Shown: one piece after another, positions 3,697-33,342 of the stretch
Layout of the letters: each line of letters starts with the position of its first letter
Position numbering within the stretch: the stretch's first letter is position 1
DNA from: Ruminococcus sp. OA3
GTDB lineage: Bacteria; Bacillota; Clostridia; Lachnospirales; Lachnospiraceae
Length of the DNA stretch: 64,000 bases
Assembly (NCBI RefSeq): GCF_022440845.1
Contig: NZ_JAKNTO010000001.1
Span: 2,232,001-2,296,000, forward strand
Reading direction: 5' to 3'
Notes under the pieces: generated by a model
Database searches by the model: none
Told to the model about the DNA's origin: nothing
The model's input: the letters and a program-made list of their open reading frames with translations, nothing else
Position numbers and translations under genes: made by a program

Positions 3697-3715
3697 TTCT
3701 TAGAGTAGAGTACTC
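3697..3715 (+). repeat. Switch 1 inverted repeat, left copy (IR-L1)
   Basis: A 19-bp sequence reading ttcttagagtagagtactc that is repeated exactly, in inverse orientation, at 5148-5166. Its centre is an imperfect dyad, AGAGT-N5-ACTCT, of the arm-spacer-arm type used by tyrosine recombinases. The pair flanks the recombinase gene and an outward promoter. Confidence 0.9.
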
Positions 3716-3756
3716 TAAACATGAAAATAATGTCGATTAATATACACTACTCATCT

Positions 3757-3784
3757 ATTATAACCTATTTTCAATAGATTTCAA
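3757..3784 (-). promoter_or_regulatory. Outward promoter on invertible segment 1 (drawn facing away from loaP)
   Basis: On the minus strand, TTGAAA (3784-3779) and a consensus TATAAT (3762-3757) are separated by 16 bp, giving a likely start near 3750. As drawn it fires leftward through IR-L into the terminator at 3615-3676. After inversion it would fire rightward through IR-R into loaP and operon 1. Confidence 0.78.
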
Positions 3785-3942
3785 TACTAATTTCATATAA
3801 TTGCTATCTTGGTTTTTGCAAATCCAAACAAAAACAGATCGATTTATCTAAAAACTTATTTTTATATTATGATATTCTCAATTATGATGAACAAAATAGT
3901 TGTATTCATCGTCAAATCCTAGTCAAAGAGAGGGAGAATCAT

Positions 3943-5067
3943 ATGCCGAGAAGAGGAGAAAACATTTATAAACGCAAAGATGGGAGATGGGAAGGGAGAT
4001 ACATTAGAGATTATGATTTATCCGGGAAAGCACGATACGGATATCTTTATGCTAAAACCTACATGGAAGTAAAAAGTAAGTTACATACGGTGAAATTTGA
4101 AAAAAACAAATACAAAGACCTGATAACAGAGATACGTTTCAGCGAAATGTTAGATCAGTGGTTGTTGAATATAAAGCCTCAGATTAAAGACTCTTCTTAT
4201 ATTAAATACTACAACATTATAAAAAATCACATACGTCCTGATCTGGGGAATCTTACTGTTGCAGAAATAACAAATTCTAAATTAGAGGATTATGTAAGAT
4301 ATCTGTTTGAATATGGGAAAAAGAACGGACATGGTAATATGGCTCCGAAATCTGTAAAAGATATTTTGGCAGTGGTGAAACTAGTGCAGGAGTTTGGAAT
4401 AAGAAGAAACTGTCATCTGCCGTGCCGGGTTCAGAATATCAGGATAAAGTCCGAAGTAAAGGATATTACCATCTTAAATTTGCCTGATCAAAAACGCTTG
4501 GAACGGTATCTGTTGAGCCAGGACAACCGTGTTTGCGATGGTATTTTACTAAGCCTGTATTCTGGTATACGAATCGGGGAGCTGTGTGCTCTTAGATGGG
4601 GAAATATTCTCTGTGAAGATGGTATTATTCAAATACGCTGTACGATGCAGAGGATACAATCTTTGGATGAGCCGGAAACTGCTGGACCCAGAACGAAAAT
4701 TCTGATTTCTACGCCTAAGAGTAAATGTTCAAATAGAGATATTCCGCTGCCCGATTTTTTAAAAAAACACATAAAGGATATTTCAGGTCCTGCACCAAGC
4801 TGCTTTTTTTTGACAGGCAGTGAACAATACGTAGAACCGCGTTGCATGAGTAATCAATTAAAAAATATATTAAAAATTTTAAACATTCCCGATGTAAATT
4901 TTCATGTTCTTCGGCATACTTTTGCGACAAGATGCATTGAAAATAACTTTGATATAAAAGCCTTGAGTGAAATTCTGGGACATTCCAGCGTAAATATTAC
5001 GCTGAACCGTTATGTACACACATCGTTAGAACAGAAACGCAGAAATATGAAAAAACTAAATTTATAA
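3943..5067 (+). CDS. Tyrosine recombinase (phage-integrase family), switch 1
   Basis: A 374-residue site-specific recombinase. The N-terminus (about residues 1-50, RRGENIYKRKDGRWEGRYI) looks like the AP2-like arm-binding domain of Tn916-type integrases, followed by a core-binding SAM-like domain (about 65-165) and the catalytic domain. Catalytic residues are visible: Arg in SGIRIGELCALRW, HxxR in HVLRHTFATRC, His in LGHSSVNITL and the nucleophilic Tyr in NRYVHTS near the C-terminus. A good Shine-Dalgarno (agagagggag) precedes ATG 3943. The gene lies wholly between two inverted repeats, so its job is most likely inversion of its own segment rather than integration; no excisionase or phage genes accompany it. 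Confidence 0.9.
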   Translation: MPRRGENIYKRKDGRWEGRYIRDYDLSGKARYGYLYAKTYMEVKSKLHTVKFEKNKYKDLITEIRFSEMLDQWLLNIKPQIKDSSYIKYYNIIKNHIRPDLGNLTVAEITNSKLEDYVRYLFEYGKKNGHGNMAPKSVKDILAVVKLVQEFGIRRNCHLPCRVQNIRIKSEVKDITILNLPDQKRLERYLLSQDNRVCDGILLSLYSGIRIGELCALRWGNILCEDGIIQIRCTMQRIQSLDEPETAGPRTKILISTPKSKCSNRDIPLPDFLKKHIKDISGPAPSCFFLTGSEQYVEPRCMSNQLKNILKILNIPDVNFHVLRHTFATRCIENNFDIKALSEILGHSSVNITLNRYVHTSLEQKRRNMKKLNL

Positions 5068-5100
5068 ATTTTTGTTTTCCGTCAGGAAACTGGTCAGAAC

Positions 5101-5143
5101 AGGGCCGGAAGTGCTGAGAAACTCAGTATTTCCGGCCCTTTTT
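5101..5143 (+). terminator. Intrinsic terminator after recombinase 1
   Basis: AGGGCCGGAA pairs with TTCCGGCCCT around a partly paired loop (CTGAG/CTCAG), followed by a run of T. It lies inside the invertible segment just before IR-R. As drawn it should stop recombinase transcripts from reaching loaP; after inversion it would lie at the far left end. Confidence 0.85.
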
Positions 5144-5147
5144 CTTT

Positions 5148-5166
5148 GAGTACTCTACTCTAAGAA
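5148..5166 (-). repeat. Switch 1 inverted repeat, right copy (IR-R1)
   Basis: The exact inverse complement of 3697-3715, ending 13 bases before the homologous first codon of loaP. Recombination here keeps the loaP frame: codons running through this repeat are in frame with loaP. Confidence 0.9.
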
Positions 5167-5179
5167 AGAAGGTGGCATT

Positions 5180-5686
5180 ATCTGGCTAGGTATTTCATGC
5201 CCTGAGAAAAACCAGGAGGAATATATCCGTCGTCTCAGGGAAAATATAGATCAATCGATTTTACAGGATGTATTCGTGCTTTCCTATGAATGTCTGAAAA
5301 AGTATGAAGGACAATGGCATCTGGAACGACTGCCTCTATTTCCAGGATATGTATTTCTCGAAAGCAATATGCCTAAAAAATTGATCTCATGCATAGAAAA
5401 TCATCCATATATATGTGCAGGATTGGATAGTGAAGCGGAGCTTATGGTGTTAAAACCGGAGGAAGAAGAGTTGCTGAAGAAGTTGTATGGTCCGGAACAT
5501 CATCTGGCGATGTCGAGAGGAGTCATCAGGGAAGGTATCACCTATGTGACGGAGGGTCCACTGATGGGCAGGGAAAATATGATTCGGAAAATAGACCGTC
5601 ATAAGAGAATTGCCAGGCTGGGTGAGGGAGTGTCCAATCATGAGAAGGAAATTAAGGCTGGCCTGGAGATTATTTTGAAAAGTTAA
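5180..5686 (+). CDS. loaP: LoaP-type NusG paralogue (processive antiterminator), first copy, no ATG as drawn
   Basis: A specialised NusG that lets RNA polymerase read through terminators in long operons. The NGN domain shows YEGQWHLERLPLFPGYVFLES, and the C-terminal KOW part shows VTEGPLMGRENMIRKIDRHK. From codon 5180 (ATC) to the stop it has 168 residues, exactly the length of the second copy, whose ATG-TGG start aligns with ATC-TGG here. The frame is open up to a TGA at 5147-5149 with no ATG; the first ordinary start is GTG 5276, which would remove about 32 residues including the first NGN strand. An AAGGTG Shine-Dalgarno lies five bases before 5180. After inversion an ATG would enter in frame, giving an N-terminus MFRVLYSKKEGG before IIWLG. 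It is followed 54 bases later by operon 1. Confidence 0.85.
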   Translation: MWLGISCPEKNQEEYIRRLRENIDQSILQDVFVLSYECLKKYEGQWHLERLPLFPGYVFLESNMPKKLISCIENHPYICAGLDSEAELMVLKPEEEELLKKLYGPEHHLAMSRGVIREGITYVTEGPLMGRENMIRKIDRHKRIARLGEGVSNHEKEIKAGLEIILKS

Positions 5687-5740
5687 GGAATAAAGGAATA
5701 TGCCATTAACAAATAAGGTGAAACACAAGGAGATAAACAG

Positions 5741-19330: not shown

Positions 19331-19389
19331 GTAATGGTAATTGCGTAAAATGTATTATTATTTCAAAATAACAGAAAGATTTTTTTATA

Positions 19390-20796: not shown

Positions 20797-20883
20797 TTAA
20801 ACTGGGTCATCGGGAATGGTAATTGATAACTAAGTCATTATGTATATTACGGTGAAAATGGTTCCTTGTATATTTCAGATAAG

Positions 20884-21330
20884 CTGACCATCCTTCATGG
20901 CCAAACTGACCACCTTTGACGGAGATTTAGATCACTGATCTCGAAGAGGGATAGACGATGACCAAAGTCATTCTTATAATGATTATGGCACACTCTCGTG
21001 TGACTATCATTTAAGGAGGATGATGATCAAGGTAGATTATCGTGAAATCCTGAGGCTTCAGAGCATTGGACACAACATCTCACAGATCGCCGGATCGCTG
21101 CACAGCTCTCGCAACACCGTTAGGGAAGTGGAAAGGCTTGCAGATGAAAAAAGAATCCGATGGCCGCTCGGAGAGGAGATGACTAATCCACAGCTTTATA
21201 TCTGCTTTATCCGGAACGGCAGAAAAAAGCAAACGTTTATCTGGAACCGGATTGTGCTTGGATTCACCGTGAACTGGCGAAAAGGGGGGAGTATTCCGTT
21301 TGAATAGTGCACTCTTTTCGGAAATTCGGA
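20884..21330 (+). pseudogene. IS21-family remnant with truncated istA
   Basis: From ATG 21020, with a strong AAGGAGG Shine-Dalgarno, the frame reads IKVDYREILRLQSIGHNIS and SLHSSRNTVREV, the helix-turn-helix N-terminus of the IS21 transposase IstA. Near 21200 a frameshift moves the family continuation (YPERQKKANVYLEPDCAWIH) into another frame and a stop ends it after about 95 codons. Upstream, two CTGACCA repeats (20885-20891, 20907-20913) resemble the repeated ends of IS21 elements. The rest of istA and istB are gone. The stretch 21331-21444 shows nothing recognisable apart from a partial match (CGCAGAATAC) to the switch 2 repeat near 21404. Confidence 0.75.
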
Positions 21331-21444
21331 GCACCTAAATCCTAAGTTTCAGAGCAGGTATTTCTGCTTCAGAGAGCAATCCTTGAATATTACGGCGTCG
21401 CAGAATACTCACCAATATCATGAAAATGTAAATAAAACAAAAAA

Positions 21445-21484
21445 GTCATAGAAACCACGTCATTACGCCATTGGTTTCTATGAC
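21445..21484. terminator. Bidirectional terminator outside IR-L of switch 2
   Basis: A 12-bp perfect stem (GTCATAGAAACC, 21445-21456, with 21473-21484), preceded by A's and followed by CTTTTTG, so it can act on both strands. On the + strand it is the first plausible end for operon 1. On the minus strand it lies 50 bases beyond IR-L and would stop the leftward promoter of switch 2. Confidence 0.85.
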
Positions 21485-21534
21485 CTTTTTGTTTTTCTGT
21501 CAATACTCATCTCTATTTTCCGTCAATATCATTT

Positions 21535-21562
21535 TTTTCGCAGAATACCGAATTCTATGAAA
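21535..21562 (+). repeat. Switch 2 inverted repeat, left copy (IR-L2)
   Basis: A 28-bp sequence containing CGCAGAATACCGAATTCTAT, repeated without mismatch in inverse orientation at 22690-22717. The centre is AGAAT-N5-ATTCT, the same arm-spacer-arm geometry as switch 1 (AGAGT-N5-ACTCT) with different bases. Confidence 0.93.
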
Positions 21563-22689
21563 TCTAAATCATTATACCTCAGATGAAATAAGAATGCAAC
21601 AGAAAGATTGCAAATGCTAAATGATCAAATCAATATAAAATTTCTGAATTTTCCCCAGTATTTTTGAAAAAATGTATAATAATAAGAATACTACAGTAAT
21701 ACAATCTACCATACTAACCAAAAGCGAAAGGGGCATACAACTAGTTATGACGACAGAAGAAATTTATTTTAATGATGTGGTTCATTATTGGCTTCAGAGT
21801 GTAAAGGACAGGAATGCATTGTCCACATATGTGAAGTACAGGCAGCTGAGTCAGAACCATATTTTCCCGTTTTTTTTAGGAATCGAAATTACACAGATAA
21901 CACCCCGGATGTTGGAATGTTTTCGTCTTCATTTATTAAAAGACGGATGTACCCAAGGCCCGGCAGTTTCTCCGGGAAACCTCCGGTGCATCATCATGAT
22001 CATGAATCATACGCTACAGCTGGCGCACAGTAAGAATCTGATTTCCGTGCCGCTCACGCTGTCTCTGAGACTGGGAAAAGCAAAGAATGTGGCCAGGGTA
22101 TTTCTCCACGAGGAGCAGGTCAAACTGGAAAATTATATTAAGAAAAACATGAATTTATCAACGTTTGGCATCTATCTGTGCCTGTATACGGGGCTTCGGC
22201 TGGGAGAAGTATGTTCTTTGCGCTGGTGTGATATAGACCTGGAAGGCAGTTACATTCATATACAGCACACGGTTCAGCGGCTGCCGCTGGAAAACCTGAG
22301 ATCTGAAAAAAAGACAAACCTGATTATCTCAGAACCGAAGAGTGCGTTTTCCATAAGGATGATTCCCATACCGGAGTTTTTGTACGGATCTATACAGACG
22401 CTGGCGAGAAATTATACGGACCCCGATTACGTCCTCACCGGCAGCCAGTCTCCCATGGAACCCCGCACGATGCAGTACCGCTATAAAAAATGTCTGCAGG
22501 AGGCGGATATAAGGTACCTGAATTTCCATACGCTGCGCCATACGTTTGCCACACGGTGCATCATGGCGGGGATGGATCCCAAAACATTGAGTGAGATTCT
22601 GGGGCATTCCGATATTAAAATAACGCTGGAATACTATTTTCATTCCTCGCTGGAATTTAAGAAAAAACAGATGAACCTTCTGACTGCAC
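21563..22689. other. Invertible DNA segment of switch 2 (presumed)
   Basis: About 1.13 kb between exact 28-bp inverted repeats, holding a leftward promoter and a tyrosine recombinase gene. The recombinase stop codon lies within the right repeat, so inversion preserves its last codons. Unlike switch 1, no terminator separates the recombinase from IR-R. Inversion is inferred from the architecture. Confidence 0.82.
21571..21599 (-). promoter_or_regulatory. Outward promoter on invertible segment 2 (drawn facing away from loaP)
   Basis: On the minus strand, TTGCAT (21599-21594) and consensus TATAAT (21576-21571) are spaced by an ideal 17 bp. As drawn it fires leftward through IR-L2 into the terminator at 21445-21484. 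After inversion it would drive loaP and operon 2, with a leader of roughly 45-50 bases consisting mostly of the repeat itself. Confidence 0.83.
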
Positions 22690-22697
22690 TTTCATAG
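21747..22697 (+). CDS. Tyrosine recombinase (phage-integrase family), switch 2
   Basis: A 316-residue recombinase counted from ATG 21747. An in-frame ATG at 21672 is possible, but a TATAAT at 21675-21680 that may serve the gene overlaps it. It has a core-binding domain (about 5-105) and a catalytic domain with Arg in TGLRLGEVCSLRW, HxxR in HTLRHTFATRC, His in LGHSDIKITL and the nucleophilic Tyr in EYYFHSS. It is related to recombinase 1 but lacks its N-terminal arm-binding domain. It lies between two inverted repeats, implying that it inverts its own segment. There is no terminator before loaP, so transcripts from it could run into loaP as drawn. Confidence 0.9.
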   Translation: MTTEEIYFNDVVHYWLQSVKDRNALSTYVKYRQLSQNHIFPFFLGIEITQITPRMLECFRLHLLKDGCTQGPAVSPGNLRCIIMIMNHTLQLAHSKNLISVPLTLSLRLGKAKNVARVFLHEEQVKLENYIKKNMNLSTFGIYLCLYTGLRLGEVCSLRWCDIDLEGSYIHIQHTVQRLPLENLRSEKKTNLIISEPKSAFSIRMIPIPEFLYGSIQTLARNYTDPDYVLTGSQSPMEPRTMQYRYKKCLQEADIRYLNFHTLRHTFATRCIMAGMDPKTLSEILGHSDIKITLEYYFHSSLEFKKKQMNLLTALS

Positions 22698-22717
22698 AAT
22701 TCGGTATTCTGCGAAAA
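22690..22717 (-). repeat. Switch 2 inverted repeat, right copy (IR-R2)
   Basis: The exact inverse complement of 21535-21562. It overlaps the last codons and stop of the recombinase gene and ends at the Shine-Dalgarno of loaP, which therefore stays with loaP in both orientations. Confidence 0.93.
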
Positions 22718-22731
22718 GGGAGGTGTTGTTC

Positions 22732-23238
22732 ATGTGGTATGCGCTCAGGTGTTCTTCTGGTGAAGCGGTTGATATTTTGCAGCTCAGTCGAAGGTTTATA
22801 ACAAAAGGGAAAATACAGGACATATTTACCTTCACATTTGATCGCATGAAACGCTATCAGGGACAGTGGCATATAGAAAATGCTCTCATGTTTCCCAATT
22901 ACATATTTCTGGAATCAAAAGATGAAGACATCAACTCTGATGAATTAAAGCAGTGCTGGGATTTCGTGAAAGCGGAGGATGTTCCAAATACACTGTTTAA
23001 GGTGCTGCCGGAGGAAGAGAGATTTTTGCGTTCGCTGTGTGACTCTTCCCATCACCTTAAGTTATCCAGAGGATATATTTGTGATGGGATAACACATATC
23101 GACGAGGGACCGCTTCGGGGACTAGAGTGTTATATCAGAAAAATTGACCGCCATAAACGGATGGCGCGGCTGGAAGTTCCGTTGCATTATGTAAATAATA
23201 CGATGTGGGCGGGTTTGGAAATTTTCTACAAGAGCTAA
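22732..23238 (+). CDS. loaP: LoaP-type NusG paralogue (processive antiterminator), second copy
   Basis: A 168-residue NusG-family protein. The N-terminal MWYALRCSSGEAVDIL, then YQGQWHIENALMFPNYIFLES (NGN domain) and the KOW region IDEGPLRGLECYIRKIDRHK match LoaP antiterminators, which control long polysaccharide and antibiotic operons. ATG 22732 with GGGAGGTG upstream is chosen over GTG 22723. It is the first gene after switch 2 and starts 4 bases after the repeat plus Shine-Dalgarno block. It has the same length and layout as the copy at 5180, with clear sequence divergence. Confidence 0.92.
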   Translation: MWYALRCSSGEAVDILQLSRRFITKGKIQDIFTFTFDRMKRYQGQWHIENALMFPNYIFLESKDEDINSDELKQCWDFVKAEDVPNTLFKVLPEEERFLRSLCDSSHHLKLSRGYICDGITHIDEGPLRGLECYIRKIDRHKRMARLEVPLHYVNNTMWAGLEIFYKS

Positions 23239-23272
23239 AAATGTGACAGACAGGCAGCAAGAGGACAGGAGA

Positions 23273-24526
23273 ATGGAAAGTACGGCGATGAAAAATAAGT
23301 TTGTAAAGCGTGATATTCCGTTTAGTCCCCCGGATATTACGGAGGATGAGATAAATGAGGTGGTGGACACGCTTCGTTCAGGGTGGATAACCACAGGACC
23401 TAAGACGAAAGAATTAGAAAGACTGACGGCGAAACGGTGTGGGACCTCGAGGGCAGTCTGTCTGAACTCCAATACGGCCTGCTCTGAGATGACTCTTCGT
23501 ATCCTGGGCATTGGCCCGGGAGACGAAGTGATCGTCCCGGCTTATACGTACACGGCTACTGCATCTGTGGTGGACCATGTGGGCGCCAGGATCGTGATGG
23601 TCGACTGCGAACCCGGAAAATTCACGATGGATTATGAAAAGCTGGAGGATTCTATTACAGAAAACACAAAAGTCATCGTTCCCGTGGATCTTTTTGGTAT
23701 TCCCTGTGAGTATGACAGGATTTGCGAGATTGTGGAGCGGAAGAAACATTTATTTCAGCCGTCCGATAACAGGATCCAACAGGCGATGGGCCGCATCATT
23801 GTTATGGCGGATGCGGCCCATTCTTTTGGCGCGGCATACAAAGGAATGCCTGTGGGAAGCCTTGCAGACTTCACCTGCTTTTCGTTCCATGCCGTAAAAA
23901 ATCTGACGACTTCGGAAGGCGGCGCAGTTGTGTGGAGAGACATTCCGGGAATTGATCATGAGGAGCTCTATCACACCTATATGCTGATGAGCCTTCACGG
24001 CCAAAGCAGGGACGCGCTGGCAAAGACGAAACCGGGCGCCTGGGAATACGACATCGCAGGACTCTGGTTTAAGTGTAATATGACGGATGTTCATGCCGGA
24101 ATCGGTCTCGGTCAGATGAAGCGTTATGACAGCATGCTGAACCGAAGGAAGAATATGATTGGGAGACTGGATAGAGCGTTTTGTGGTAGCGGGACAGAAC
24201 CTGTGAAGCACTATACAGAAGAATGGCAGTCATCCGGGCATCTTTATATCCTGCGTCTCTTTAAGGGGCAGGCTGCCATAGAACCGGAAATCCGCAATGA
24301 TTTTATTGTCAGGATGGCGCAGCTGGGTGTGGCGACAAATGTTCATTACAAGCCGCTGCCGATGCATACGGGATATCAGGCGCTTGGATTCGATATCAGG
24401 GATTACCCCAATGCGTATGAGCAGTTCAGGAATGAGATTACGCTGCCGATGCATACGAGCCTGAGTGATGAGGATATAGACTATCTGGTATGGGCAGTGA
24501 AGAGAGTTTCCGCGGAGTTACTGTAG
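23273..24526 (+). CDS. DegT/DnrJ/EryC1 sugar aminotransferase
   Basis: About 417 residues from ATG 23273 (Shine-Dalgarno gaggacaggag; an upstream GTG at 23243 is also in frame). It is a PLP enzyme with GWITTGPKTKELE near the N-terminus, the LNSNTACSEMTLRI loop, ADAAHSFGA and the Schiff-base lysine in SFHAVKNLTTSEGG. It most resembles ArnB/PseC-type nucleotide-sugar 4-aminotransferases. With the acyltransferase and deacetylase that follow, it probably makes an N-acylated amino sugar for operon 2. It is the first structural gene after loaP, as in operon 1. Confidence 0.9.
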   Translation: MESTAMKNKFVKRDIPFSPPDITEDEINEVVDTLRSGWITTGPKTKELERLTAKRCGTSRAVCLNSNTACSEMTLRILGIGPGDEVIVPAYTYTATASVVDHVGARIVMVDCEPGKFTMDYEKLEDSITENTKVIVPVDLFGIPCEYDRICEIVERKKHLFQPSDNRIQQAMGRIIVMADAAHSFGAAYKGMPVGSLADFTCFSFHAVKNLTTSEGGAVVWRDIPGIDHEELYHTYMLMSLHGQSRDALAKTKPGAWEYDIAGLWFKCNMTDVHAGIGLGQMKRYDSMLNRRKNMIGRLDRAFCGSGTEPVKHYTEEWQSSGHLYILRLFKGQAAIEPEIRNDFIVRMAQLGVATNVHYKPLPMHTGYQALGFDIRDYPNAYEQFRNEITLPMHTSLSDEDIDYLVWAVKRVSAELL

Positions 24527-24569
24527 AAGCTGCACATATGTTTTGCACAGAAGAAATGAGAGAAATGGA

Positions 24570-25451
24570 ATGAAGTATTTTGAGATAAATGTAAAAAAAT
24601 ATGTTCCCTGCAGATCATTTGACGTTTTCAGGCCGGCGTCTTTGTATTTTCCGAAAGACAATGCGGTTATGTTCATAACGAGAGAATACATGGGATTAGT
24701 AAACGCGCTGGAAACCTGCACAAACTGCCTGGTTTTCTGGCCGGAAGAAGTTGAAGTCCCACCGGAGATCAATGAGAGACATGCCGTCGCAGCGAGTGCA
24801 GATCCCAGAACCGAATACTGCAGGTTTTACAGAGACAATGAGATTACATATTATCCGGAAGTCGAAGAATACAATCTGGTGAATGGGGCCTGTATTTCTC
24901 CAAAAGCTGTGATTGGATCAGAGTGCAGGATTTTTCCGGGTGCTTATATCGGGGGTGAGGTCAGACTGGGGGATCACGTGTATGTGGGCAGTGGAGCCAG
25001 GCTGGTCGGCAGGATAAAGGTCGGAAATCATGTTGTCATTCGCGAAAATGCCGTTATCGGCGCAGACGGATTATCGACGAACCGGGACGAAGAGGGACGT
25101 GCAGTCACGATGCCTCAGTTTGGCGGTGTGGTTATCGAGGATGACGTGCAGATTGGCGCCCTGACAGTGGTTGCAAGAGGTGCAATCGATGATACGGTAC
25201 TGAAGAGAGGCAGCAAAATAGATAACAGTTGCTTCATTTCCCATAACGTGATTCTGGGTGAAGATACATTTGTTGTGGGGGAAAGTATCGTGTTCGGAAG
25301 CGCCACGACAGGGAAACAGGCATATATTTCCGGCAATTGCTGCGTGCGTGACGGTATAAGGATAGGAGAAAAAGCGCTGGTTGGCATGGGCGCCGTCGTT
25401 GTAAAACCAGTCCCGGATGGTGCCGTTGTAAAAGGCAATCCGGCGAGATGA
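24570..25451 (+). CDS. LpxD-like N-acyltransferase (left-handed beta-helix)
   Basis: About 293 residues from ATG 24570 (an upstream TTG 24543 is in frame; the Shine-Dalgarno is weak for either). The N-terminal domain of about 100 residues is followed by hexapeptide repeats (VIGSECRIFPGAYIGGEVRL, GRIKVGNHVVIREN) and a long insertion, DGLSTNRDEEG, as in LpxD-type acyltransferases. This lineage has no lipid A, so it more likely N-acylates a nucleotide amino sugar made by the preceding aminotransferase. The acyl donor is unknown. Confidence 0.8.
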   Translation: MKYFEINVKKYVPCRSFDVFRPASLYFPKDNAVMFITREYMGLVNALETCTNCLVFWPEEVEVPPEINERHAVAASADPRTEYCRFYRDNEITYYPEVEEYNLVNGACISPKAVIGSECRIFPGAYIGGEVRLGDHVYVGSGARLVGRIKVGNHVVIRENAVIGADGLSTNRDEEGRAVTMPQFGGVVIEDDVQIGALTVVARGAIDDTVLKRGSKIDNSCFISHNVILGEDTFVVGESIVFGSATTGKQAYISGNCCVRDGIRIGEKALVGMGAVVVKPVPDGAVVKGNPAR

Positions 25452-25471
25452 GCTGACTGGAGGATACTGTT

Positions 25472-26122
25472 ATGAAAAAGGTTTTAGTAGTTGCTGCTCA
25501 TCCGGACGATGAGCTGCTTGGAGTGGGTGGAACTGTCGCAAGGCACGTCAGTCAGGGTGATGAAGTCATGTCTGTCATCATGTGCGAGGGCGAGTCCCTG
25601 CGCTACAAAAAAGATATGGGACAGAAGACGGCGATCAGCCAGGCGGGAAAGATCCTCGGCGTCAAAGAGATACGACAGATAGGTTTTCCCGACCAGCGGT
25701 TAGATACCGTTACACTGACCGAGATCATTACTCCGCTGGAAAAGATCTCCGATAAGTTCAAGCCGAATATTGTGTACTGCCAGTATGGCGGAGACATTAA
25801 TATGGATCATCAGCTGCTTTTTCAGGCGGCAAATGTGGCCTTTCGGCCTCTGGACGGCTGGATCGAGGACGTATATGCTTTTTATACGGCGAGCAGCACA
25901 GAGTGGGGATTTCCCAGGACCTTTACGCCGGACACCTGGATTGACATCACGGATACACTGGAAAAAAAGATTGCGGCATTCCTGAGTTATCACAGCGAGG
26001 TGAGAGAATATCCGCATCCCAGGTCTGCAAAAGCGTTGGAGCATGCGGCACACTTCTGGGGGAACCAGTGCTCCATGGAAGCGGCTGAGGCGTTTATGAC
26101 GGTGAGAAGTGTTAAGAGGTGA
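25472..26122 (+). CDS. PIG-L family deacetylase
   Basis: A 216-residue LmbE/PIG-L Zn-dependent deacetylase. The Zn-binding AAHPDDELLGVGGT lies at residues 7-20 and a further histidine in MDHQLLFQAA near 111. These enzymes remove N-acetyl groups from amino sugars. It follows an acyltransferase and precedes an ATP-grasp ligase, so deacetylation followed by attachment of a different acyl group is a coherent idea (inference). Shine-Dalgarno ctggagg precedes ATG 25472. Confidence 0.9.
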   Translation: MKKVLVVAAHPDDELLGVGGTVARHVSQGDEVMSVIMCEGESLRYKKDMGQKTAISQAGKILGVKEIRQIGFPDQRLDTVTLTEIITPLEKISDKFKPNIVYCQYGGDINMDHQLLFQAANVAFRPLDGWIEDVYAFYTASSTEWGFPRTFTPDTWIDITDTLEKKIAAFLSYHSEVREYPHPRSAKALEHAAHFWGNQCSMEAAEAFMTVRSVKR

Positions 26123-26129
26123 AGCTGTT

Positions 26130-27320
26130 ATGAAAAAAGTTATGATACTCGGAGCTTCTGCGGGTCAGATGCCGATGATCAGAAAAGTGAAGGAGCTGGG
26201 ATATGAACTGGCGGTCGTAGATTACAATGACAGGGCCGTCGGTATTCCTTATGCAGATAAATTCTACCACGCAAGTACGATTGATACGGATGCGGTCGTG
26301 AGGGCGGCAAAAGATTATAAACCGGACGGTATTACCACGGTTCAGACGGATATGCCGATGCGAGCTGTGGCAGAAGCCTGCAGAGAACTCCATATCCCCG
26401 GAATATCCCCGGAGGCAGCTTTGAACGCAACGGATAAGGAAAAAATGATGGAGGCGTTCAAAAGGGCCGGCGTGAGCAGTCCGTGGTTCTACGCGTTTGC
26501 CCCCGATGATACGGATGCATTCATATTGGGAAAGATACAGTATCCATGTGTTGTGAAACCGGCAGATAATTCCGGAAGCAGAGGGGTATCGCTTGCAGAG
26601 AACGGCCAAGATGCTCTGGGGGCAATTGCGTATGCACGCAGTCATTCCCGGAACGGAAGGATCATAGTCGAAGAATATATGACAGGGCCTGAAGTGAGCG
26701 TCGAGGTGATGATGCTTTCGGGAGAGGCAAATGTGCTGGCTGTGACGGATAAGCTGACAACAGGTGCGCCGCATTTTATAGAGATGGGGCACAGTGAACA
26801 GTCACGGCTCGGCGCTGAGATCACTGAGAAAATAAAAAGACTGGCAAAACAGGCAATGCTTGCCGTTGGGGCAGCTGAAGGCCCGGGACATGTCGAGATC
26901 ATCGTGACATCGAAGGGAGCAAAGGTGGTGGAGCTGGGAGCACGGCTCGGCGGGGATTTTATTACCACAGACCTGGTTCCGCTGGCTACGGGAGTTGATT
27001 TTCTGAAAGCGGTGATTCAGGTGGCCTGCGGAGAGAGACCCGATATGACGCCTAAATTCCACAGGGGAAGTGCGATTCGGTTCATTCCTGCCGGGGAGGG
27101 AATCATCAGGGGTATCGAGGGCATGGACGAAGCCGCGAAGATTCCCGGCATCATGAAGGTTGAATGTCTGCGGACTATTGGTGACAGAATCCCTCCGCTG
27201 ACCAGCAGTCTGGACAGGGCGGGCTACGTGATCGCTCAGGCGGACAACCCGGAACAGGCAGAGACACTGTGCGATCAGGCGGTTAAAAAAATCAAGTTTA
27301 TTGTGGGGGAGGAACTCTGA
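26130..27320 (+). CDS. ATP-grasp ligase
   Basis: About 396 residues from ATG 26130 (Shine-Dalgarno agaggtga; it overlaps nothing). The PurK/CarB-like Rossmann opening is KKVMILGASAGQMPMIRKV, the ATP-binding loop YPCVVKPADNSGSRGV lies near residue 137, EEYMTGPEVSVEVMM near 181, and the metal-binding end VELGARLGGDFITTDLVPLA near 268. It probably joins a carboxylate to an amine on a sugar or small precursor. It is one of three ATP-grasp genes in the two operons, two of them in operon 2. Confidence 0.88.
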   Translation: MKKVMILGASAGQMPMIRKVKELGYELAVVDYNDRAVGIPYADKFYHASTIDTDAVVRAAKDYKPDGITTVQTDMPMRAVAEACRELHIPGISPEAALNATDKEKMMEAFKRAGVSSPWFYAFAPDDTDAFILGKIQYPCVVKPADNSGSRGVSLAENGQDALGAIAYARSHSRNGRIIVEEYMTGPEVSVEVMMLSGEANVLAVTDKLTTGAPHFIEMGHSEQSRLGAEITEKIKRLAKQAMLAVGAAEGPGHVEIIVTSKGAKVVELGARLGGDFITTDLVPLATGVDFLKAVIQVACGERPDMTPKFHRGSAIRFIPAGEGIIRGIEGMDEAAKIPGIMKVECLRTIGDRIPPLTSSLDRAGYVIAQADNPEQAETLCDQAVKKIKFIVGEEL

Positions 27321-27321
27321 C

Positions 27322-27939
27322 GTGTACCAACGTTATTTGAAGCGGTTGTTTGACATCATTATTGGTATTGCTGCATTTCCGTTTGTATGTGTAATTACGA
27401 TAATTGTGGCGCCATTCATATACCTGGAAGACCGAGGATGTGTTTTTTACAGAGCAAAAAGAAGAGGGCTTAACGGAAGAGTTTTCGTAATGTATAAATA
27501 CAGATCCATGAAAATGAACGCCCCTGACATACGAAACAAAGACAATTCCACTTACAATTCGCCAAAGGACCCGAGAATAACAAAAGTAGGAAGCGTTCTG
27601 CGCAAGACATCCATCGATGAGATACCTCAGTTTTTAAATGTCTTAAAAGGCAATATGAGCGTTGTCGGGCCTCGCCCGGTGACCACGGACAGACCGCTTT
27701 CGGATTATGATGAAAAGAGACGGGTGAGACTTACCGTCAGACCGGGGATAACGGGGTATACACAGGCATATTTTCGAAATTCTGTTTCTCAGGAAGAGAA
27801 ATTACAAAAAGATGCCGATTATGCCAGGCGGGTCACGTTTATTGGTGATGTGAAAATACTAATCAAAACAGTTGAGACAGTTTTACTGAGAAAAAATATT
27901 TATATGAACGTTGACGATCCAAAGCAATGGAGAACTTAA
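27322..27939 (+). CDS. Phosphoglycosyl transferase (bacterial sugar transferase)
   Basis: 205 residues from GTG 27322 (GGGGGAGG upstream). It is a monotopic PGT with N-terminal YQRYLKRLFDIIIGIAAFPF followed by the hydrophobic helix, then GCVFYRAKRRGLNGRVF, YKYRSMK and the signature TSIDEIPQFLNVLKGNMSVVGPRP. It loads the first sugar-phosphate on undecaprenyl phosphate for operon 2. At about 200 residues it is the minimal PglC-like form and clearly different from the operon 1 enzyme, so the two repeat units probably begin with different sugars. Its start lies one base after the preceding stop. Confidence 0.93.
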   Translation: MYQRYLKRLFDIIIGIAAFPFVCVITIIVAPFIYLEDRGCVFYRAKRRGLNGRVFVMYKYRSMKMNAPDIRNKDNSTYNSPKDPRITKVGSVLRKTSIDEIPQFLNVLKGNMSVVGPRPVTTDRPLSDYDEKRRVRLTVRPGITGYTQAYFRNSVSQEEKLQKDADYARRVTFIGDVKILIKTVETVLLRKNIYMNVDDPKQWRT

Positions 27940-27950
27940 GGAGAAAGAGT

Positions 27951-29153
27951 ATGAATGTAGCAGGTAAGAGGCTGCTGATCCTGGGTGCAGGCCGTGGACA
28001 GGTGGGACTTTATAAGGCGGCAAGGGAGATGGGAATTACAGCCATAGCAGGGACAATGCCAGGTGACAATCTTCCGGGTATTTTTCGGGCCGACGAAATC
28101 AAATATATGAATATCGCTGAACCGGATGAGGTTGTGGAAAAAGCCAGGGAGCTTGAGTTAGACGGTGTTGCAACCTGTTGTCTGGATACCGGTATTTCTG
28201 CTCTGGGAAAAACCTGTGACACATTAAATCTGACGGGCATTGGGGAAAATGCTGCGATCATGTGCAATGACAAATCTAAGATGAAGAAGGCTTTTATGGA
28301 AAACGGAGTCAGCACGGCACAGTATTTTGAAATTTCCAGTGATCAGGAACTGGAAGATGCTCTGAAAAAAATTCATCTTCCTGTTATTATCAAGGCGACA
28401 GATCTTCAGGGGAGCAACGGCATCTATATTTCCAAAACAAGGGAAGCGGCTTTAGAGGGATTTCATTCCGCGATGAAATTGACGAAACGTTCATACTGTA
28501 TCGTTGAAGAATTCATTGAAGGCTGGGAGTTTGGTGCACAGGCGTTTGTTTACCAGGGGGAGGTACTGTTTGTAATGCCCCACGGAGATGAGACATTCAT
28601 GAGCCATACAGCTGTTCCGGTTGGACATTATGTTCCACTTGAATGCGACGAGAATGTTTACAGGCAGACAGAGGATGTGGTCAGGAAGGCGATCAGGGCA
28701 ATTGGTCTGAACAACTGTGCGGTCAATGTGGATCTGATATTGAAGGACAACAAAGTATATATGATCGAGCTTACAGGACGGGTGGGTGCGAACTGTCTGC
28801 CGGAGCTTGTTGAGATCAATTACGGTGTTGAATACTATAAGATGATTGCTGCTATGGCCGTTGGGGCTGATCCATTAGAATACTGGGAAATGAGAAACCC
28901 TGTGAGAACCGCAGGGCTTGCAAAAATGCTGTTTTCCACTGAAAAGAAGGGGACTTTAAAGGACATCTGTTATACAGGCCAGATGAGTGATGACATTGTA
29001 GAGATAACTTTCTTCAGGAAGCCGGGGGATGATATCCGGGTGTTTGAAAATTCCAATGATTGTGTAGGACAGATTATTGTGAAAGGCAAAACGATGAATG
29101 ACTGTAAAAGAAAATCAAATGAGATTATTGAAAAAATAAGGATAGATGTCTGA
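27951..29153 (+). CDS. ATP-grasp ligase
   Basis: About 400 residues from ATG 27951 (Shine-Dalgarno aaggaga). The opening GKRLLILGAGRGQVGLYKAA is followed by LPVIIKATDLQGSNGIYISK near residue 142, EEFIEGWEFGAQAFVY near 184 and MIELTGRVGANCLPELVEIN near 269. It belongs to the same broad group as the gene at 26130 but is distinct in sequence. Its separation from that gene by the phosphoglycosyl transferase suggests two different amide-forming steps, not a recent duplication. Confidence 0.88.
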   Translation: MNVAGKRLLILGAGRGQVGLYKAAREMGITAIAGTMPGDNLPGIFRADEIKYMNIAEPDEVVEKARELELDGVATCCLDTGISALGKTCDTLNLTGIGENAAIMCNDKSKMKKAFMENGVSTAQYFEISSDQELEDALKKIHLPVIIKATDLQGSNGIYISKTREAALEGFHSAMKLTKRSYCIVEEFIEGWEFGAQAFVYQGEVLFVMPHGDETFMSHTAVPVGHYVPLECDENVYRQTEDVVRKAIRAIGLNNCAVNVDLILKDNKVYMIELTGRVGANCLPELVEINYGVEYYKMIAAMAVGADPLEYWEMRNPVRTAGLAKMLFSTEKKGTLKDICYTGQMSDDIVEITFFRKPGDDIRVFENSNDCVGQIIVKGKTMNDCKRKSNEIIEKIRIDV

Positions 29154-29184
29154 ATTTAGAGTTCAGTCTCAGAAGGAGAAATAA

Positions 29185-30450
29185 TTGAAAACGTTATGCC
29201 TGTTTACGAATGCCTTTCCATATGGAAACTGGGAACCTTATCTGGAAACAGAAATAAAATTTTATAATGAGTTTGATAAAGTATGGATTTTTGCATTGCA
29301 GATTCGCGAAGAACATAAAAATGTCAGGAGATCTGTGGGAAAAAACGTGAGTGTTATTCCGGTATGGTATGCCTCCAGGCTCACATATCTGATAAATGCG
29401 CTGCGAGCGGTATTTGACGCTGACTTTTATAAAGAATTCCTGCGTCTTGTTAAACGCAGGCGTTTTTGTATCAGGAATTTAATCAATCTGTTTGTTTTCT
29501 TTAGCCGGGCGTATTATGAAGCAGGTATTATTGAAAAGAAAATGAAAAATCAAAAACTGGTTGGAGAGGTTGTTTTTTATTCCTACAGGTTTGAATATCA
29601 GCCGTACGTAGCAATGATTCTGAGAAAAAAGTGGAACTTGAACTGCAGGATTGTCGCCAGGGCACACAGATATGATCTATATGAAGAAGAACACCGCGGT
29701 GCATATATCCCAATGCGACAAGAAATCCTTGATGAGATAGATTTTGTATACCCCTGTTCTGATGATGGAACTGATTATATTCTAAATGGTTATCCCGAAT
29801 ATAAAAACAAGGTGGCTACAAAATTTCTGGGTACATTGGACCGCGGTATAAAGGAATATGAGTGGAAAGATTTTCCATATGAGATTGTAACCTGCTCCAA
29901 TGTGGTAAAGGTAAAACGTCTGGATAAGTTAATCCGCGCCATGTCTTTGATCAGAGATGTGGAAATTAAATGGACTCATTATGGAGATGGACTGCTAATG
30001 GAGGATATCAAAGCGCTTGCAGAAAAAATGCTTGGCGCTAACGTTACATATGAATTTAAGGGAAATGTCGATAATACGGCACTGCTTGAAGATTATATGA
30101 CAGAAAATTATTATTTGTTCTTAAACGTCAGTTCATCAGAGGGTATTCCCGTATCAATCATGGAATCATCTTCAGTGGGCATACCGTGTATTGCCACTGA
30201 TGTCGGCGGGACCAGAGAAATAATTACTGATGGTGTCAATGGTATTCTTTTAAGTGCGGATGTTTCGGACCAGGAACTGGCGGATCGGATTACGAGGTTT
30301 TGCAGGCTGGACAGGTATCAGTATCTGCGATTCCGCAAAGAGGCAAGAAGATTGTGGGATGATAAGTATAATGCAGAGAAGAATTATCTGAGGTTTACCA
30401 ACGAATTATTCTGGCAGGGGAGTAACAAACAGATCGATAGTAAGAGGTGA
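29185..30450 (+). CDS. GT4-type glycosyltransferase
   Basis: A 421-residue GT-B retaining glycosyltransferase. The N-terminal LCLFTNAFPYGNWEPYLETE and the C-terminal nucleotide-sugar-binding part with TCSNVVKVKRLDKLIRAM near residue 235 and SSEGIPVSIMESSSVGIPC near 315, including the E-x7-E region, are typical. The TTG start at 29185 has AAGGAGA spaced seven to eight bases upstream. It overlaps the polymerase gene by four bases. It is the only clear glycosyltransferase besides the initiating enzyme in operon 2, suggesting a short repeat unit or extra transferases elsewhere. Confidence 0.9.
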   Translation: MKTLCLFTNAFPYGNWEPYLETEIKFYNEFDKVWIFALQIREEHKNVRRSVGKNVSVIPVWYASRLTYLINALRAVFDADFYKEFLRLVKRRRFCIRNLINLFVFFSRAYYEAGIIEKKMKNQKLVGEVVFYSYRFEYQPYVAMILRKKWNLNCRIVARAHRYDLYEEEHRGAYIPMRQEILDEIDFVYPCSDDGTDYILNGYPEYKNKVATKFLGTLDRGIKEYEWKDFPYEIVTCSNVVKVKRLDKLIRAMSLIRDVEIKWTHYGDGLLMEDIKALAEKMLGANVTYEFKGNVDNTALLEDYMTENYYLFLNVSSSEGIPVSIMESSSVGIPCIATDVGGTREIITDGVNGILLSADVSDQELADRITRFCRLDRYQYLRFRKEARRLWDDKYNAEKNYLRFTNELFWQGSNKQIDSKR

Positions 30451-31883
30451 AAGGTTTGCGTGTGAATATCAAATCGTTATATGGACTATTGGCAATAGCT
30501 GTGATGTTGATTGCCGGTTTGCTGACAAATGTCGAAGGCTGGTTTTTGCTTGTTTTGTCTGCCTGGCTGTTTTTACTGTTCTATGCATATCATCATATCA
30601 AAGACCGGAGTATGCTGTTTGTTTTCTTAATTGCTTTTTTTGTTTTTCTGTTGGGAAGGGATTTTCTGCAGCAATTCATAGATTATAAAACAGAAAGTTT
30701 TCCAGAGGATGTGCAGGCACATGCTTACATTTCCTATTTTGTAACGTTACTGACTCTTGGTTTAGGTTATCATATATTCACCAAATATGGAAAAAAACGC
30801 AGAAAGCGAAACGTAGATTATGTGAATAATACTGAGAAGGTTGCGTTAATAAAAAAAATAAGTCTGTATGTTTATTATTTTTCGTGGGTGTTTGCAGTCG
30901 TATCTGAGATTGCAGTTGGAAGTTTTGTAGCTGCAAGAGGGGTTACGGATTATTATACGGATTTTTCCGAGTATCTGACCGGAAACACCATATTATATGT
31001 TATCAGTAAAATTGAATTGATTATGCCCGTTGCGTGGAATATCTATCTTGCAACACGGCCAAATAAAAAGCAGATAAAGTGTCCGCTCATCTTCTATGTA
31101 GTTTATCTCGTGATATCCCTGGGCAGCGGACAGCGCTCTACAGCGATGCTGGGAATTCTGTTTTTGTTTGTGTATTTTGTATATCGCCAGGGGCTTAATC
31201 CAGATGAGTCCTGGATCACAAAAAAAATGGTGATAACCGGAGTCATAGCTGTTCCACTATTAGCGGTATTTGCATCGGGCTATAGCATCTGGCGTGAAGG
31301 AGGGGAGATATCCGGAATCAGATTTATGGATGGATTTATCAACTTCTTTTACGATCAGGGTGTTACCGGCAATGTCATGAAGAGAGCTTACATGTACAGT
31401 GATAAAATTCCGTCAGATCAGACATATATTTTGGAGTTCCTGCACAGCGGAATTTTTGCGCGGCTGTTTGGTATCAAAGTGTATCACGGAAATACGGTTG
31501 AACATGCATTATACGGAGGAAGCTTTACGCATGCGCTGGGTTATACCGTGATGGGAGATGCGTATTTATCAGGCAGGGGGACGGGCAGCTGTTATATTGC
31601 TGAGTTATATCAGGATTTTGGTTATACAGGTATTATACTGGGAAATGTTCTCTATTCTCTTTTGATTGCAAGGATTGCAAACAGAAATAAGGATGAGAGG
31701 GTGTTATCGACCGCTATTCGTTTCATAATCATCACTCAATTACTGTGGGCTATACGAGGCAGTTACACTGGATTTATCACACAGCTTTTTGCACCCACAA
31801 CTTTAGTTACTATTATTTTTGTGTTTGTTTCAGCACAGCTTCTGTTAAATAAAAAACTAAAAGGTTTGACACCTGGGGCGTGA
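30447..31883 (+). CDS. Oligosaccharide repeat-unit polymerase (Wzy-like)
   Basis: A 478-residue multi-pass protein with about ten to twelve hydrophobic segments. A charged loop near residues 280-375 contains WREGGEISGIRFMDGFINF and YHGNTVEHALYGGSF, the region expected to act in polymerisation. It begins GTG 30447 in a GTGA overlap with the glycosyltransferase stop. It is unrelated at sight to the operon 1 polymerase, so the two operons make different polymers. Confidence 0.82.
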   Translation: MKGLRVNIKSLYGLLAIAVMLIAGLLTNVEGWFLLVLSAWLFLLFYAYHHIKDRSMLFVFLIAFFVFLLGRDFLQQFIDYKTESFPEDVQAHAYISYFVTLLTLGLGYHIFTKYGKKRRKRNVDYVNNTEKVALIKKISLYVYYFSWVFAVVSEIAVGSFVAARGVTDYYTDFSEYLTGNTILYVISKIELIMPVAWNIYLATRPNKKQIKCPLIFYVVYLVISLGSGQRSTAMLGILFLFVYFVYRQGLNPDESWITKKMVITGVIAVPLLAVFASGYSIWREGGEISGIRFMDGFINFFYDQGVTGNVMKRAYMYSDKIPSDQTYILEFLHSGIFARLFGIKVYHGNTVEHALYGGSFTHALGYTVMGDAYLSGRGTGSCYIAELYQDFGYTGIILGNVLYSLLIARIANRNKDERVLSTAIRFIIITQLLWAIRGSYTGFITQLFAPTTLVTIIFVFVSAQLLLNKKLKGLTPGA

Positions 31884-31893
31884 GGTATCATGA

Positions 31894-33342
31894 ATGACAA
31901 AAGATAATACGATTCAAAAGTCAATGGGTTGGTCTCTTTCTTCAGAGGTGGCTGTTAAATTTGTTGTTCCGGTAACAAACATGATTCTGGCTCGGGTGCT
32001 CACTCCGGATGCATTCGGTGTGGTAGCAGTCTGCAATATGCTGGTTAGCTTTGTCGACTTAATTACAGATGCCGGTTTTGGCAAGTACCTTGTACAGCAT
32101 GATTTTGAAAGTGAAGAAGAAAAAGGTCAGTATGCAGACGTATCATTTTGGACCAATCTTGGCATCTCTGTACTGATGACAGTGCTGATTATTCTGTTCC
32201 GGTTCCCGATCGCTTCATTTTTGGGACATAGAGATTACGGCAACGTTATAGCAATAGCCAGTGTACAATTGATAATTACATCGGTCTCCAGCATTCAAAC
32301 GGCGATTTTCAGGAGAGAATTTGAGTTTAAAAAGTTATTTGTCGCCAGGATTTCAGTTGCGGCAGCCCCTTTAATGATTACAGTGCCACTGGCACTCATA
32401 TTGCGCTCGTTTTGGGCACTGATCATCGGAAATATTTCTGGTGCATTGGTGAATGCGATGGTGCTGACAGCGTTTTCTAAATGGAGGCCAGGTTTTTTTT
32501 ACAAGGTAACGATTCTAAAAAGAATGTTTAATTATAGTTTCTGGTCCTTATGTGAAGCGCTTGCAAACTGGACGATTTTCTGGGTGGATACGTTCATTGT
32601 CGGGAGTGTGTTTTCAGAATACCAGCTAGGGCTCTATAAAAATTCCACCAACATGGTTCAGTCTATTATGGGAATGATATCTGCATCCATGAGCCCTGTT
32701 CTGCTGTCCACATTGTCGCGTCTGAAAAATTCAAAAGAAAAATACAGTGATGCGTTTCTCAATATTTACAATCTGATACTCTATCTTATATTGCCTATGG
32801 GAGCAGGCCTTTTCCTATATAGAGATACTGCAACACTTCTCTTGTTCGGCAGTCAATGGTCGGAAGCAGCCAATATAGTGGGAGCATGGGGATTAATGAT
32901 GCTGTGCAGCGTAACGTTTTACAGTTTTCCGGCTGAACTGTATAAATCCAAAGGAATACCCCAGGTATTATTTTTGTTTCAAATGCTTTACCTGGTCATA
33001 CTGATTCCAGTCTGTATCGTGAGTGCAGGGTATGGCTTTTGGATCATGGTCTATGCAAGGTGCCTGTGTGTTCTGTGGCAGGTGTTTATAAGCGTAATCT
33101 TCATGAAAAAGTATATAGGGATGGCACTCAATAAATTTTTCGTAACATTTATTACGCCATGTCTGGCAACGGGCTGTATGGTCATAGGTTCAGTTTTCAT
33201 GAAGACATTTTTGAGGGGAACACCGGGCGATATAATTGCGATCTTCATTTGCACGATAATTTACACTGCGTTTCTCGCAATTTTTGCAAGGCGGCAGATA
33301 ACCAGGAGTATCAGCGGTATGAGAGATAACAATTTGAAATAA
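31894..33342 (+). CDS. Polysaccharide flippase (Wzx, MATE-like)
   Basis: A 482-residue protein with about 14 hydrophobic segments. It opens SMGWSLSSEVAVKFVVPVTN, with RVLTPDAFGVVAVCNMLVSF near residue 32, as in the polysaccharide-export flippase family. It moves the lipid-linked repeat unit of operon 2 outward. It is the last gene of operon 2. No strong intrinsic terminator follows; only a bulged hairpin at 33464-33508 is seen. Confidence 0.9.
   Translation: MTKDNTIQKSMGWSLSSEVAVKFVVPVTNMILARVLTPDAFGVVAVCNMLVSFVDLITDAGFGKYLVQHDFESEEEKGQYADVSFWTNLGISVLMTVLIILFRFPIASFLGHRDYGNVIAIASVQLIITSVSSIQTAIFRREFEFKKLFVARISVAAAPLMITVPLALILRSFWALIIGNISGALVNAMVLTAFSKWRPGFFYKVTILKRMFNYSFWSLCEALANWTIFWVDTFIVGSVFSEYQLGLYKNSTNMVQSIMGMISASMSPVLLSTLSRLKNSKEKYSDAFLNIYNLILYLILPMGAGLFLYRDTATLLLFGSQWSEAANIVGAWGLMMLCSVTFYSFPAELYKSKGIPQVLFLFQMLYLVILIPVCIVSAGYGFWIMVYARCLCVLWQVFISVIFMKKYIGMALNKFFVTFITPCLATGCMVIGSVFMKTFLRGTPGDIIAIFICTIIYTAFLAIFARRQITRSISGMRDNNLK

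What the first reader, a model, noticed from the sequence alone, without database searches (positions are those of the whole stretch)
21535..22717. Switch 2: 28-bp exact inverted repeats bracket a second recombinase and an ideal promoter, also drawn OFF
The repeats at 21535-21562 and 22690-22717 match over 28 bp without mismatch. Inside, TTGCAT-17-TATAAT on the minus strand points left, away from loaP-2. The right repeat overlaps the recombinase stop codon and abuts the loaP Shine-Dalgarno, so both genes stay intact in either orientation. Conservation of a perfect 28-bp pair in otherwise diverged DNA implies active maintenance by recombination.
Basis: partly seen in the sequence, partly recalled or inferred. 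Interest (0 to 1): 0.85.

Follow-up and report, generated by a model that had tools for sequence, protein, structure and literature searches.

The report
Self-flipping promoter cassette before capsule operon
A 1.2-kb piece of DNA that carries its own flipping enzyme and an outward-facing promoter sits, like a toggle switch, in front of a capsule-sugar gene cluster of a gut-type Clostridia bacterium, and a sister species carries exactly this piece flipped the other way round, which shows that it really turns over.

Summary
The two 28-bp arms (21535-21562, 22690-22717) are exactly complementary and are the only such pair in the genome. They bracket a tyrosine recombinase and a leftward TTGCAT-17-TATAAT. 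loaP2, a LoaP-like NusG paralog heading a Wzx/Wzy polysaccharide operon, lies just outside. Comparison supports inversion directly: in a same-genus genome (G002) both arms are identical and the ~91% identical segment lies INVERTED between collinear flanks, its promoter ~45 nt from loaP2, both genes intact. A second recombinase switch elsewhere in the genome also differs in orientation between the two species.

The promoter is not ideal (-35 matches 3 of 6), although conserved. "OFF" is unproven: unlike Switch 1, no terminator separates the recombinase from loaP2, so its transcript could run into loaP2.

The cassette belongs to a wider family: 50 of 80 related recombinases are bracketed by inverted repeats (0 of 80 in a control), and 30 of 40 non-redundant cassettes carry a near-consensus outward promoter at the recombinase-upstream end. 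The five closest loaP relatives outside the genus sit behind small invertible promoters. New variant of a known kind (inverton-controlled polysaccharide locus), resembling Bacteroides invertible promoter-UpxY.

The parts
21434..21495 (.). Bidirectional intrinsic-terminator-like hairpin just outside the left repeat; would stop the outward transcript in the window orientation and the recombinase transcript in the other
   Evidence: 24-bp arms, T-tracts on both strands; RNA fold -27.3 (+) and -32.6 (-) kcal/mol, z -8.3 and -9.5; conserved in G002
21535..21562 (.). Left recombination site (28-bp inverted repeat); 11-bp arms TTTCRYAGAAT inverted around 5-bp ACCGA
   Evidence: identical in G002
21571..21599 (-). 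Outward promoter P_out, TTGCAT-17-TATAAT, pointing left in the window; reads into loaP2 when the segment is inverted
   Evidence: conserved in G002, where it points at loaP2
21675..21680 (+). Probable -10 (TATAAT) of the recombinase promoter
   Evidence: sequence, conserved in G002; no good -35, tentative
21747..22697 (+). rec2, tyrosine recombinase (316 aa) inside the invertible segment
   Evidence: PF00589 2.5e-27 and PF14659; R151, K198, H261, R264, H287, Y297 invariant in alignment A1; best PDB relatives are 'Int protein' entries 6en0/6emz
22690..22717 (.). Right recombination site (28-bp inverted repeat), overlaps the rec2 stop codon
22719..22724 (+). Shine-Dalgarno of loaP2 (GGGAGG), outside the segment
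   Evidence: sequence
22732..23238 (+). loaP2, LoaP-like NusG paralog (168 aa), first gene of the operon
   Evidence: PF02357; NF033641 antiterm_LoaP 100.5 bits, 1.1e-28, below cut-off 125
23243..33342 (+). Polysaccharide operon presumed to be under the switch: DegT aminotransferase, hexapeptide transferase, PIG-L, ATP-grasp, initiating sugar transferase, glycosyltransferase, Wzy, Wzx
   Evidence: Pfam; all on + strand with short gaps
3697..5166 (.). Switch 1: same architecture (IR 3697-3718/5145-5166, rec1 3943-5067, outward TTGAAA-16-TATAAT, terminator 5101-5139) before loaP1 (~5177-5686); same orientation in G002

Best explanation
The segment is a self-contained phase-variation cassette. 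Rec2, a tyrosine recombinase, binds the two 28-bp sites and inverts the 1,183-bp segment that holds its own gene and an outward promoter. In one orientation (seen in the sister species) the promoter fires through the right site into loaP2, about 45 nt away; the LoaP-like protein is then presumed to help RNA polymerase read the polysaccharide operon that follows. In the window's orientation the promoter points at a bidirectional terminator outside the left site, and loaP2 gets at most read-through from the recombinase promoter, so it is low or off. Shown: the repeats, the recombinase and its catalytic residues, the promoter-like sequence and its conservation, the terminator-like hairpin, and the two orientations in two species. 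Inferred: that Rec2 itself is the enzyme, ON/OFF expression, LoaP2 antitermination, and capsule output.
For: Inverted orientation between collinear flanks in G002 with both 28-bp arms identical. A second recombinase-bearing segment (L035/L038) is also flipped relative to its flanks between the two genomes. Of 80 related recombinases tested, 50 (8 of them from this genus) lie between inverted repeats, against 0 of 80 in a reverse-not-complement control. In non-redundant cassettes an outward promoter of at least 10/12 lies at the recombinase-upstream end in 30 of 40, against 5 of 40 at the other end and about 5% in shuffles (p about 1e-30 and 2e-8). Many arms share CGYAGA / TTTCGYAGAAT (26 of 40). 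The five closest loaP2 relatives outside the genus (L150-L154) each have a 207-388-bp segment between such repeats directly before loaP. The operon encodes Wzx, Wzy and a sugar transferase.
Against: No reads or expression data, so inversion within a population and ON/OFF output are untested. The -35 is poor. No terminator separates rec2 from loaP2, so the window orientation may not be silent. LoaP2 scores below the curated LoaP cut-off, and no UNCG hairpin of the kind bound by B. velezensis LoaP was found near the operon start. rec2's nearest relatives L070-L072 have no bracketing repeats.
Confidence: 0.85

Rival explanations
1. The segment inverts, but the switch is not ON/OFF: in the window orientation rec2 and loaP2 are co-transcribed (recombinase-coupled expression), and in the other orientation loaP2 has its own promoter, so the two states differ in level or in coupling to recombinase rather than in presence.
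For: No terminator between rec2 stop and loaP2, 34-bp gap with a good SD. The nearest bracketed relatives L073/L074 share the compact layout, with rec stop inside the repeat and the next gene 22-24 nt beyond.
Against: Switch 1 and about 20 of 47 cassettes do have a terminator there, suggesting that insulation is common. The recombinase promoter has no good -35.
Confidence: 0.3
2. The segment is a small mobile element (integrase between terminal repeats) that landed next to loaP2, and the inverted orientation in G002 reflects independent insertion.
For: An identical cassette occurs in six different genera (L096-L098, L100-L102), so such units travel, at least inside larger elements.
Against: Same insertion point to the base in both species, conserved left terminator and right loaP2 flanks, a single copy in the genome, conserved outward promoter.
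Confidence: 0.05
3. The inversion is catalysed in trans by another recombinase of the genome (for example rec1) and rec2 is a passenger.
For: The genome holds about ten related tyrosine recombinases; loaP loci in four other genera have promoter-only invertons, four of five with no related recombinase within the ~19-kb stretch.
Against: rec1 is only 36-37% identical and its own repeats differ in sequence. rec2 is intact and conserved at 93%. Bracketing by own repeats is common in this family.
Confidence: 0.07
4. Chance or ancient repeat with RecA-mediated inversion; no programmed switch.
For: Homologous recombination can invert between repeats.
Against: 28 bp is short for RecA; the pattern recurs in dozens of cassettes with promoters at one end.
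Confidence: 0.01

Closest known systems
Bacteroides fragilis/Bacteroidota capsule invertons with UpxY antiterminators (Mpi or tyrosine invertases; PMC11892184, PMC5903667)
   Same: Invertible promoter in front of a NusG-like antiterminator gene that heads a polysaccharide operon; several such loci in one genome
   Different: There the promoter segment is short and the invertase lies outside or acts in trans as a master (Mpi, serine type). Here a tyrosine recombinase lies inside its own segment, the site differs, the antiterminator is LoaP-like, and the organism is a Clostridia member
Salmonella Hin flagellar switch
   Same: Recombinase gene and outward promoter both inside the invertible segment
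   Different: Hin is a serine recombinase and flips a promoter for flagellin and repressor genes; no sequence relation (rec2 is a tyrosine recombinase)
Inverton group 139 / invertase group 35 of Clostridia (PhaseFinderDC study, PMC11892184)
   Same: Clostridia invertons statistically tied to one tyrosine recombinase group; orientation seen to shift in culture
   Different: Its repeat motif is in a supplement I could not read; the example given is a ~200-bp promoter-only inverton; no LoaP link was found in the main text passages read
Providencia stuartii fimbrial inverton (PMC5903667)
   Same: 844-bp invertible segment that encloses a recombinase ORF
   Different: 14-bp imperfect repeats, Gammaproteobacteria, fimbriae
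C. difficile RecV switches (cwpV, flg; PMC5903667)
   Same: Clostridia, tyrosine recombinase, invertible segments controlling surface structures
   Different: RecV acts in trans on short segments that hold no recombinase gene
LoaP of Bacillus velezensis (PMC12691694)
   Same: NusG paralog acting on a long biosynthetic operon; its family is the best NCBIfam model for loaP2
   Different: loaP2 scores below the cut-off, no UNCG hairpin found near it, and no phase switch is described there (0 mentions of recombinase)

Membership tests
Inverton / invertible promoter | Inverted repeats bracketing a promoter | tested here: met
Inverton / invertible promoter | Both orientations occur between the same flanks | tested here: met
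   window vs G002, two species; not shown within one strain
Inverton / invertible promoter | Orientation changes expression of the flanking gene | not testable with these tools
   no expression data
Tyrosine recombinase | Phage_integrase family with catalytic R-K-H-R-H-Y | tested here: met
   PF00589 2.5e-27; R151, K198, H261, R264, H287, Y297 invariant
Tyrosine recombinase | Core site of two inverted ~11-bp arms around a short spacer | tested here: met
   TTTCGCAGAAT-ACCGA-ATTCTATGAAA, arms 9/11 alike
Hin-type switch | Serine recombinase | tested here: not met
LoaP antiterminator | Curated NCBIfam cut-off (NF033641, 125 bits) | tested here: not met
   100.5 bits, E 1.1e-28, best family by far: LoaP-like, not filed as LoaP
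LoaP antiterminator | UNCG hairpin in the operon leader | tested here: not met
   none with stem of at least 5 in 22550-24600 in the ON arrangement or in the same region of G002
Phase-variable polysaccharide locus of the UpxY type | Invertible promoter directly before a NusG-like gene heading a Wzx/Wzy operon | tested here: met
   works like it, not claimed as a member by descent
Inverton group 139 / invertase group 35 | Shared repeat motif and recombinase group | not testable with these tools
   motif only in supplement

The most novel reading that the evidence does not exclude
Clostridia carry a large, portable family of self-flipping promoter cassettes (tyrosine recombinase plus outward promoter between their own sites) that have been recruited repeatedly before surface operons. 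In this genus two only distantly related cassettes were placed before two neighbouring LoaP-type polysaccharide operons, giving independently switchable capsules: a Bacillota counterpart, built from different parts, of the Bacteroides invertible promoter-UpxY system.
Probability: 0.5. Interest if true: 0.72.

Novelty: new variant of a known kind. Interest (0 to 1): 0.6.

Why it matters
Phase-variable capsules are well known in Bacteroides but little described in Clostridia. Here the same logic (invertible promoter, NusG-like antiterminator, polysaccharide operon) appears with a different recombinase placed inside its own segment, and orientation differences between sister species are caught in the genomes. 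The cassette family offers a ready search rule for phase-variable surface loci in gut Clostridia (Tad pili, type VII-like secretion, adhesins, glycosyltransferases), and a compact one-piece genetic toggle.

Tried and rejected
Same-species data with both orientations: none held (the genus search covered 4 genomes; metagenome scans not available). Phage collection, blastn of 21400-23300: no match, so no evidence of a phage origin at that sensitivity. UNCG-type LoaP hairpin: scanned in the ON arrangement of both switches and in the same region of G002, none found. The dyad inside the 28-bp repeat folds as a hairpin with loop UCGGU, but this is the recombinase half-site symmetry and not a UNCG loop, so I do not call it a LoaP site. 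'loaP is always next to such cassettes' was rejected: of the 80 recombinase relatives only one (L133) has a loaP, over 4 kb away. 'Bracketed recombinases form one clade' was rejected: the label needs 14 changes on the tree (23.5 in shuffles), so it is clustered but not one clade. Jiang et al. 2019 and the supplements could not be read. A first script and two family searches failed on bad input and were repeated.

Full report
1. The observation. The arms at 21535-21562 and 22690-22717 are complementary over 28 of 28 bases. With up to three mismatches allowed they are the only two occurrences in the 4.06-Mb genome. By my arithmetic a chance pair of that length at that distance in 64 kb is expected about 1e-8 times. 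On the minus strand TTGCAT (21599-21594), 17 nt, TATAAT (21576-21571) points left, with a start expected at the inner edge of the left arm. The -10 is perfect but the -35 matches only 3 of 6, so 'ideal' is too strong; the consensus scanner gives 9 of 12. Rec2 most likely begins at ATG 21747. Its stop (22695-22697) lies in the right arm, and the Shine-Dalgarno and ATG (22732) of loaP2 follow directly.

2. What the proteins are. Rec2 is a tyrosine recombinase (PF00589 2.5e-27) with the catalytic set R151, K198, H261, R264, H287, Y297 invariant in alignment A1. Its nearest solved relatives by sequence are entries named Int protein (6en0, 6emz). loaP2 is a NusG paralog; the best curated model is antiterm_LoaP, 100.5 bits against a cut-off of 125, so I call it LoaP-like. 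The operon behind it carries DegT, hexapeptide-transferase, PIG-L and ATP-grasp proteins, an initiating sugar transferase, a glycosyltransferase, Wzy and Wzx: a Wzx/Wzy polysaccharide locus.

3. Direct evidence of inversion. The same-genus genome G002 holds the locus (L034). The two 28-bp arms are identical to the window's. The segment between them is 91.4% identical but in the opposite orientation, while the left flank (92.8%, 152 bp including the terminator hairpin) and the right flank (84-89%, loaP2 and operon) are collinear. Recombinase and loaP2 are intact there. In G002 the promoter points at loaP2 about 45 nt away. The 50 bp formed by the -10 region, the start region and the arm are identical in the two species, although the intergenic region as a whole is visibly diverged. 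The same comparison shows that another recombinase segment of the genome (L035 against L038) is flipped relative to its flanks, while Switch 1 and the segment at L036/L039 have the same orientation in both. The four recombinase segments therefore give two flipped and two unflipped. An assembly artefact is unlikely, since 28-bp repeats are shorter than any read.

4. Recombination site. The arm reads T-TTTCGCAGAAT-ACCGA-ATTCTATGAAA: two inverted 11-bp half-sites (9 of 11 alike) around 5 bp, close to the usual layout of tyrosine-recombinase core sites (general knowledge). It recurs nearly unchanged in L073/L074 (TTTTTCGCAGAATACCTAATTCTGCGAAA).

5. Family. A scan of 84,980 species genomes gave 80 relatives. 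Of 80 recombinases testable (relatives plus this genus), 50 are bracketed by inverted repeats scoring at least 16 (42 of them outside this genus), against none in a reverse-not-complement control. Of 40 non-redundant cassettes, 30 have a promoter of at least 10/12 within 90 bp inside the repeat upstream of the recombinase, pointing out, against 5 of 40 at the other end and 5% in shuffles; eight are 12/12. Neighbouring genes include Tad-pilus TadZ (L089, L112), FtsK/SpoIIIE (L120), FHA (L143), BspA-type LRR (L110), DUF6273 repeats (L104), and GT2 plus PMT_2 (L073). Some cassettes move between genera: L096-L098 and L100-L102 have identical recombinases and repeats. On the tree rec1 and rec2 fall in different, distant groups, so the two loaP loci of this window seem to have recruited their cassettes separately.

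6. LoaP link. In 43 of 299 family genomes (this one included) a loaP2 relative was found. The five with the closest proteins outside the genus (L150-L154, four genera) each have a 207-388-bp segment between 16-26-bp exact repeats directly before loaP, mostly with a promoter near one end, pointing towards loaP in some (L151, L153, L154) and away in L150. Invertible promoter before loaP thus recurs outside this genus; putting the recombinase inside is the variant seen here.

7. How it works, and what is not settled. In the window orientation the outward promoter faces a bidirectional hairpin with T-tracts (21434-21495; -27.3 and -32.6 kcal/mol, z below -8). In the other orientation it drives loaP2. 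LoaP action on the operon is inferred: the UNCG hairpin bound by B. velezensis LoaP (PMC12691694) was not found.

8. Literature. Bacteroidota invertons with UpxY as regulatable neighbours are established (PMC11892184). A Clostridia inverton group tied to a tyrosine recombinase group is reported there. A recombinase ORF inside an inverton is reported for Providencia (PMC5903667). In the held library I found no paper joining LoaP with invertible promoters: every listed hit has zero mentions of LoaP, and the LoaP paper has none of recombinase. Many subscription papers, Jiang et al. 2019 among them, could not be read, so absence of a report is not proven.

Verdict: a real, self-contained inversion switch, with natural inversion shown between sister species; a new variant of a known kind.

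Noticed in passing
window 5145-5200: loaP1 lacks an in-frame ATG/GTG/TTG at its expected start; homology and the Shine-Dalgarno suggest initiation at ATT (5177-5179) or ATC (5180-5182).
   Followed up: partly
L035 (G000:C1:226000-236000) 4226-5632 and L038 3846-5242: Another recombinase segment between inverted repeats, flipped relative to its flanks between the two species; neighbouring genes of unknown function.
   Followed up: partly
L036 (G000:C1:2419000-2432000) 4710-6114: Fourth self-bracketed recombinase, near a pseudopilin-like gene and an RluA-like gene; same orientation in both species.
   Followed up: partly
L037 6900-8300 (about 16 kb left of the window start): A third loaP-like gene upstream of the two switches, with a terminator-like hairpin before it and no bracketing repeats.
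   Followed up: partly
window 19000-21411 versus L034: The 3' end of the polysaccharide operon behind Switch 1 has no match at the same place in G002, while the terminator, both switches and loaP genes are kept: gene content seems to swap between fixed control modules.
   Followed up: partly
L150-L154: loaP genes of four other genera sit directly behind 207-388-bp promoter invertons of a similar site type.
   Followed up: yes
L096, L097, L098, L100, L101, L102: Identical self-flipping cassette in six genera (Butyricicoccus, Blautia, Agathobaculum, Negativibacillus, Eisenbergiella, Brotaphodocola), so probably carried by a mobile element.
   Followed up: no
L142 5462-7103; L116 3042-6999; L137 1-1579: Unusual cassettes: duplicated 54-bp site pair, a 3.9-kb segment between 29-bp repeats, and 99-bp exact repeats.
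   Followed up: no
L108 3717-5069: Gene next to a cassette has a weak Cas12f1/TnpB-like domain match.
   Followed up: no
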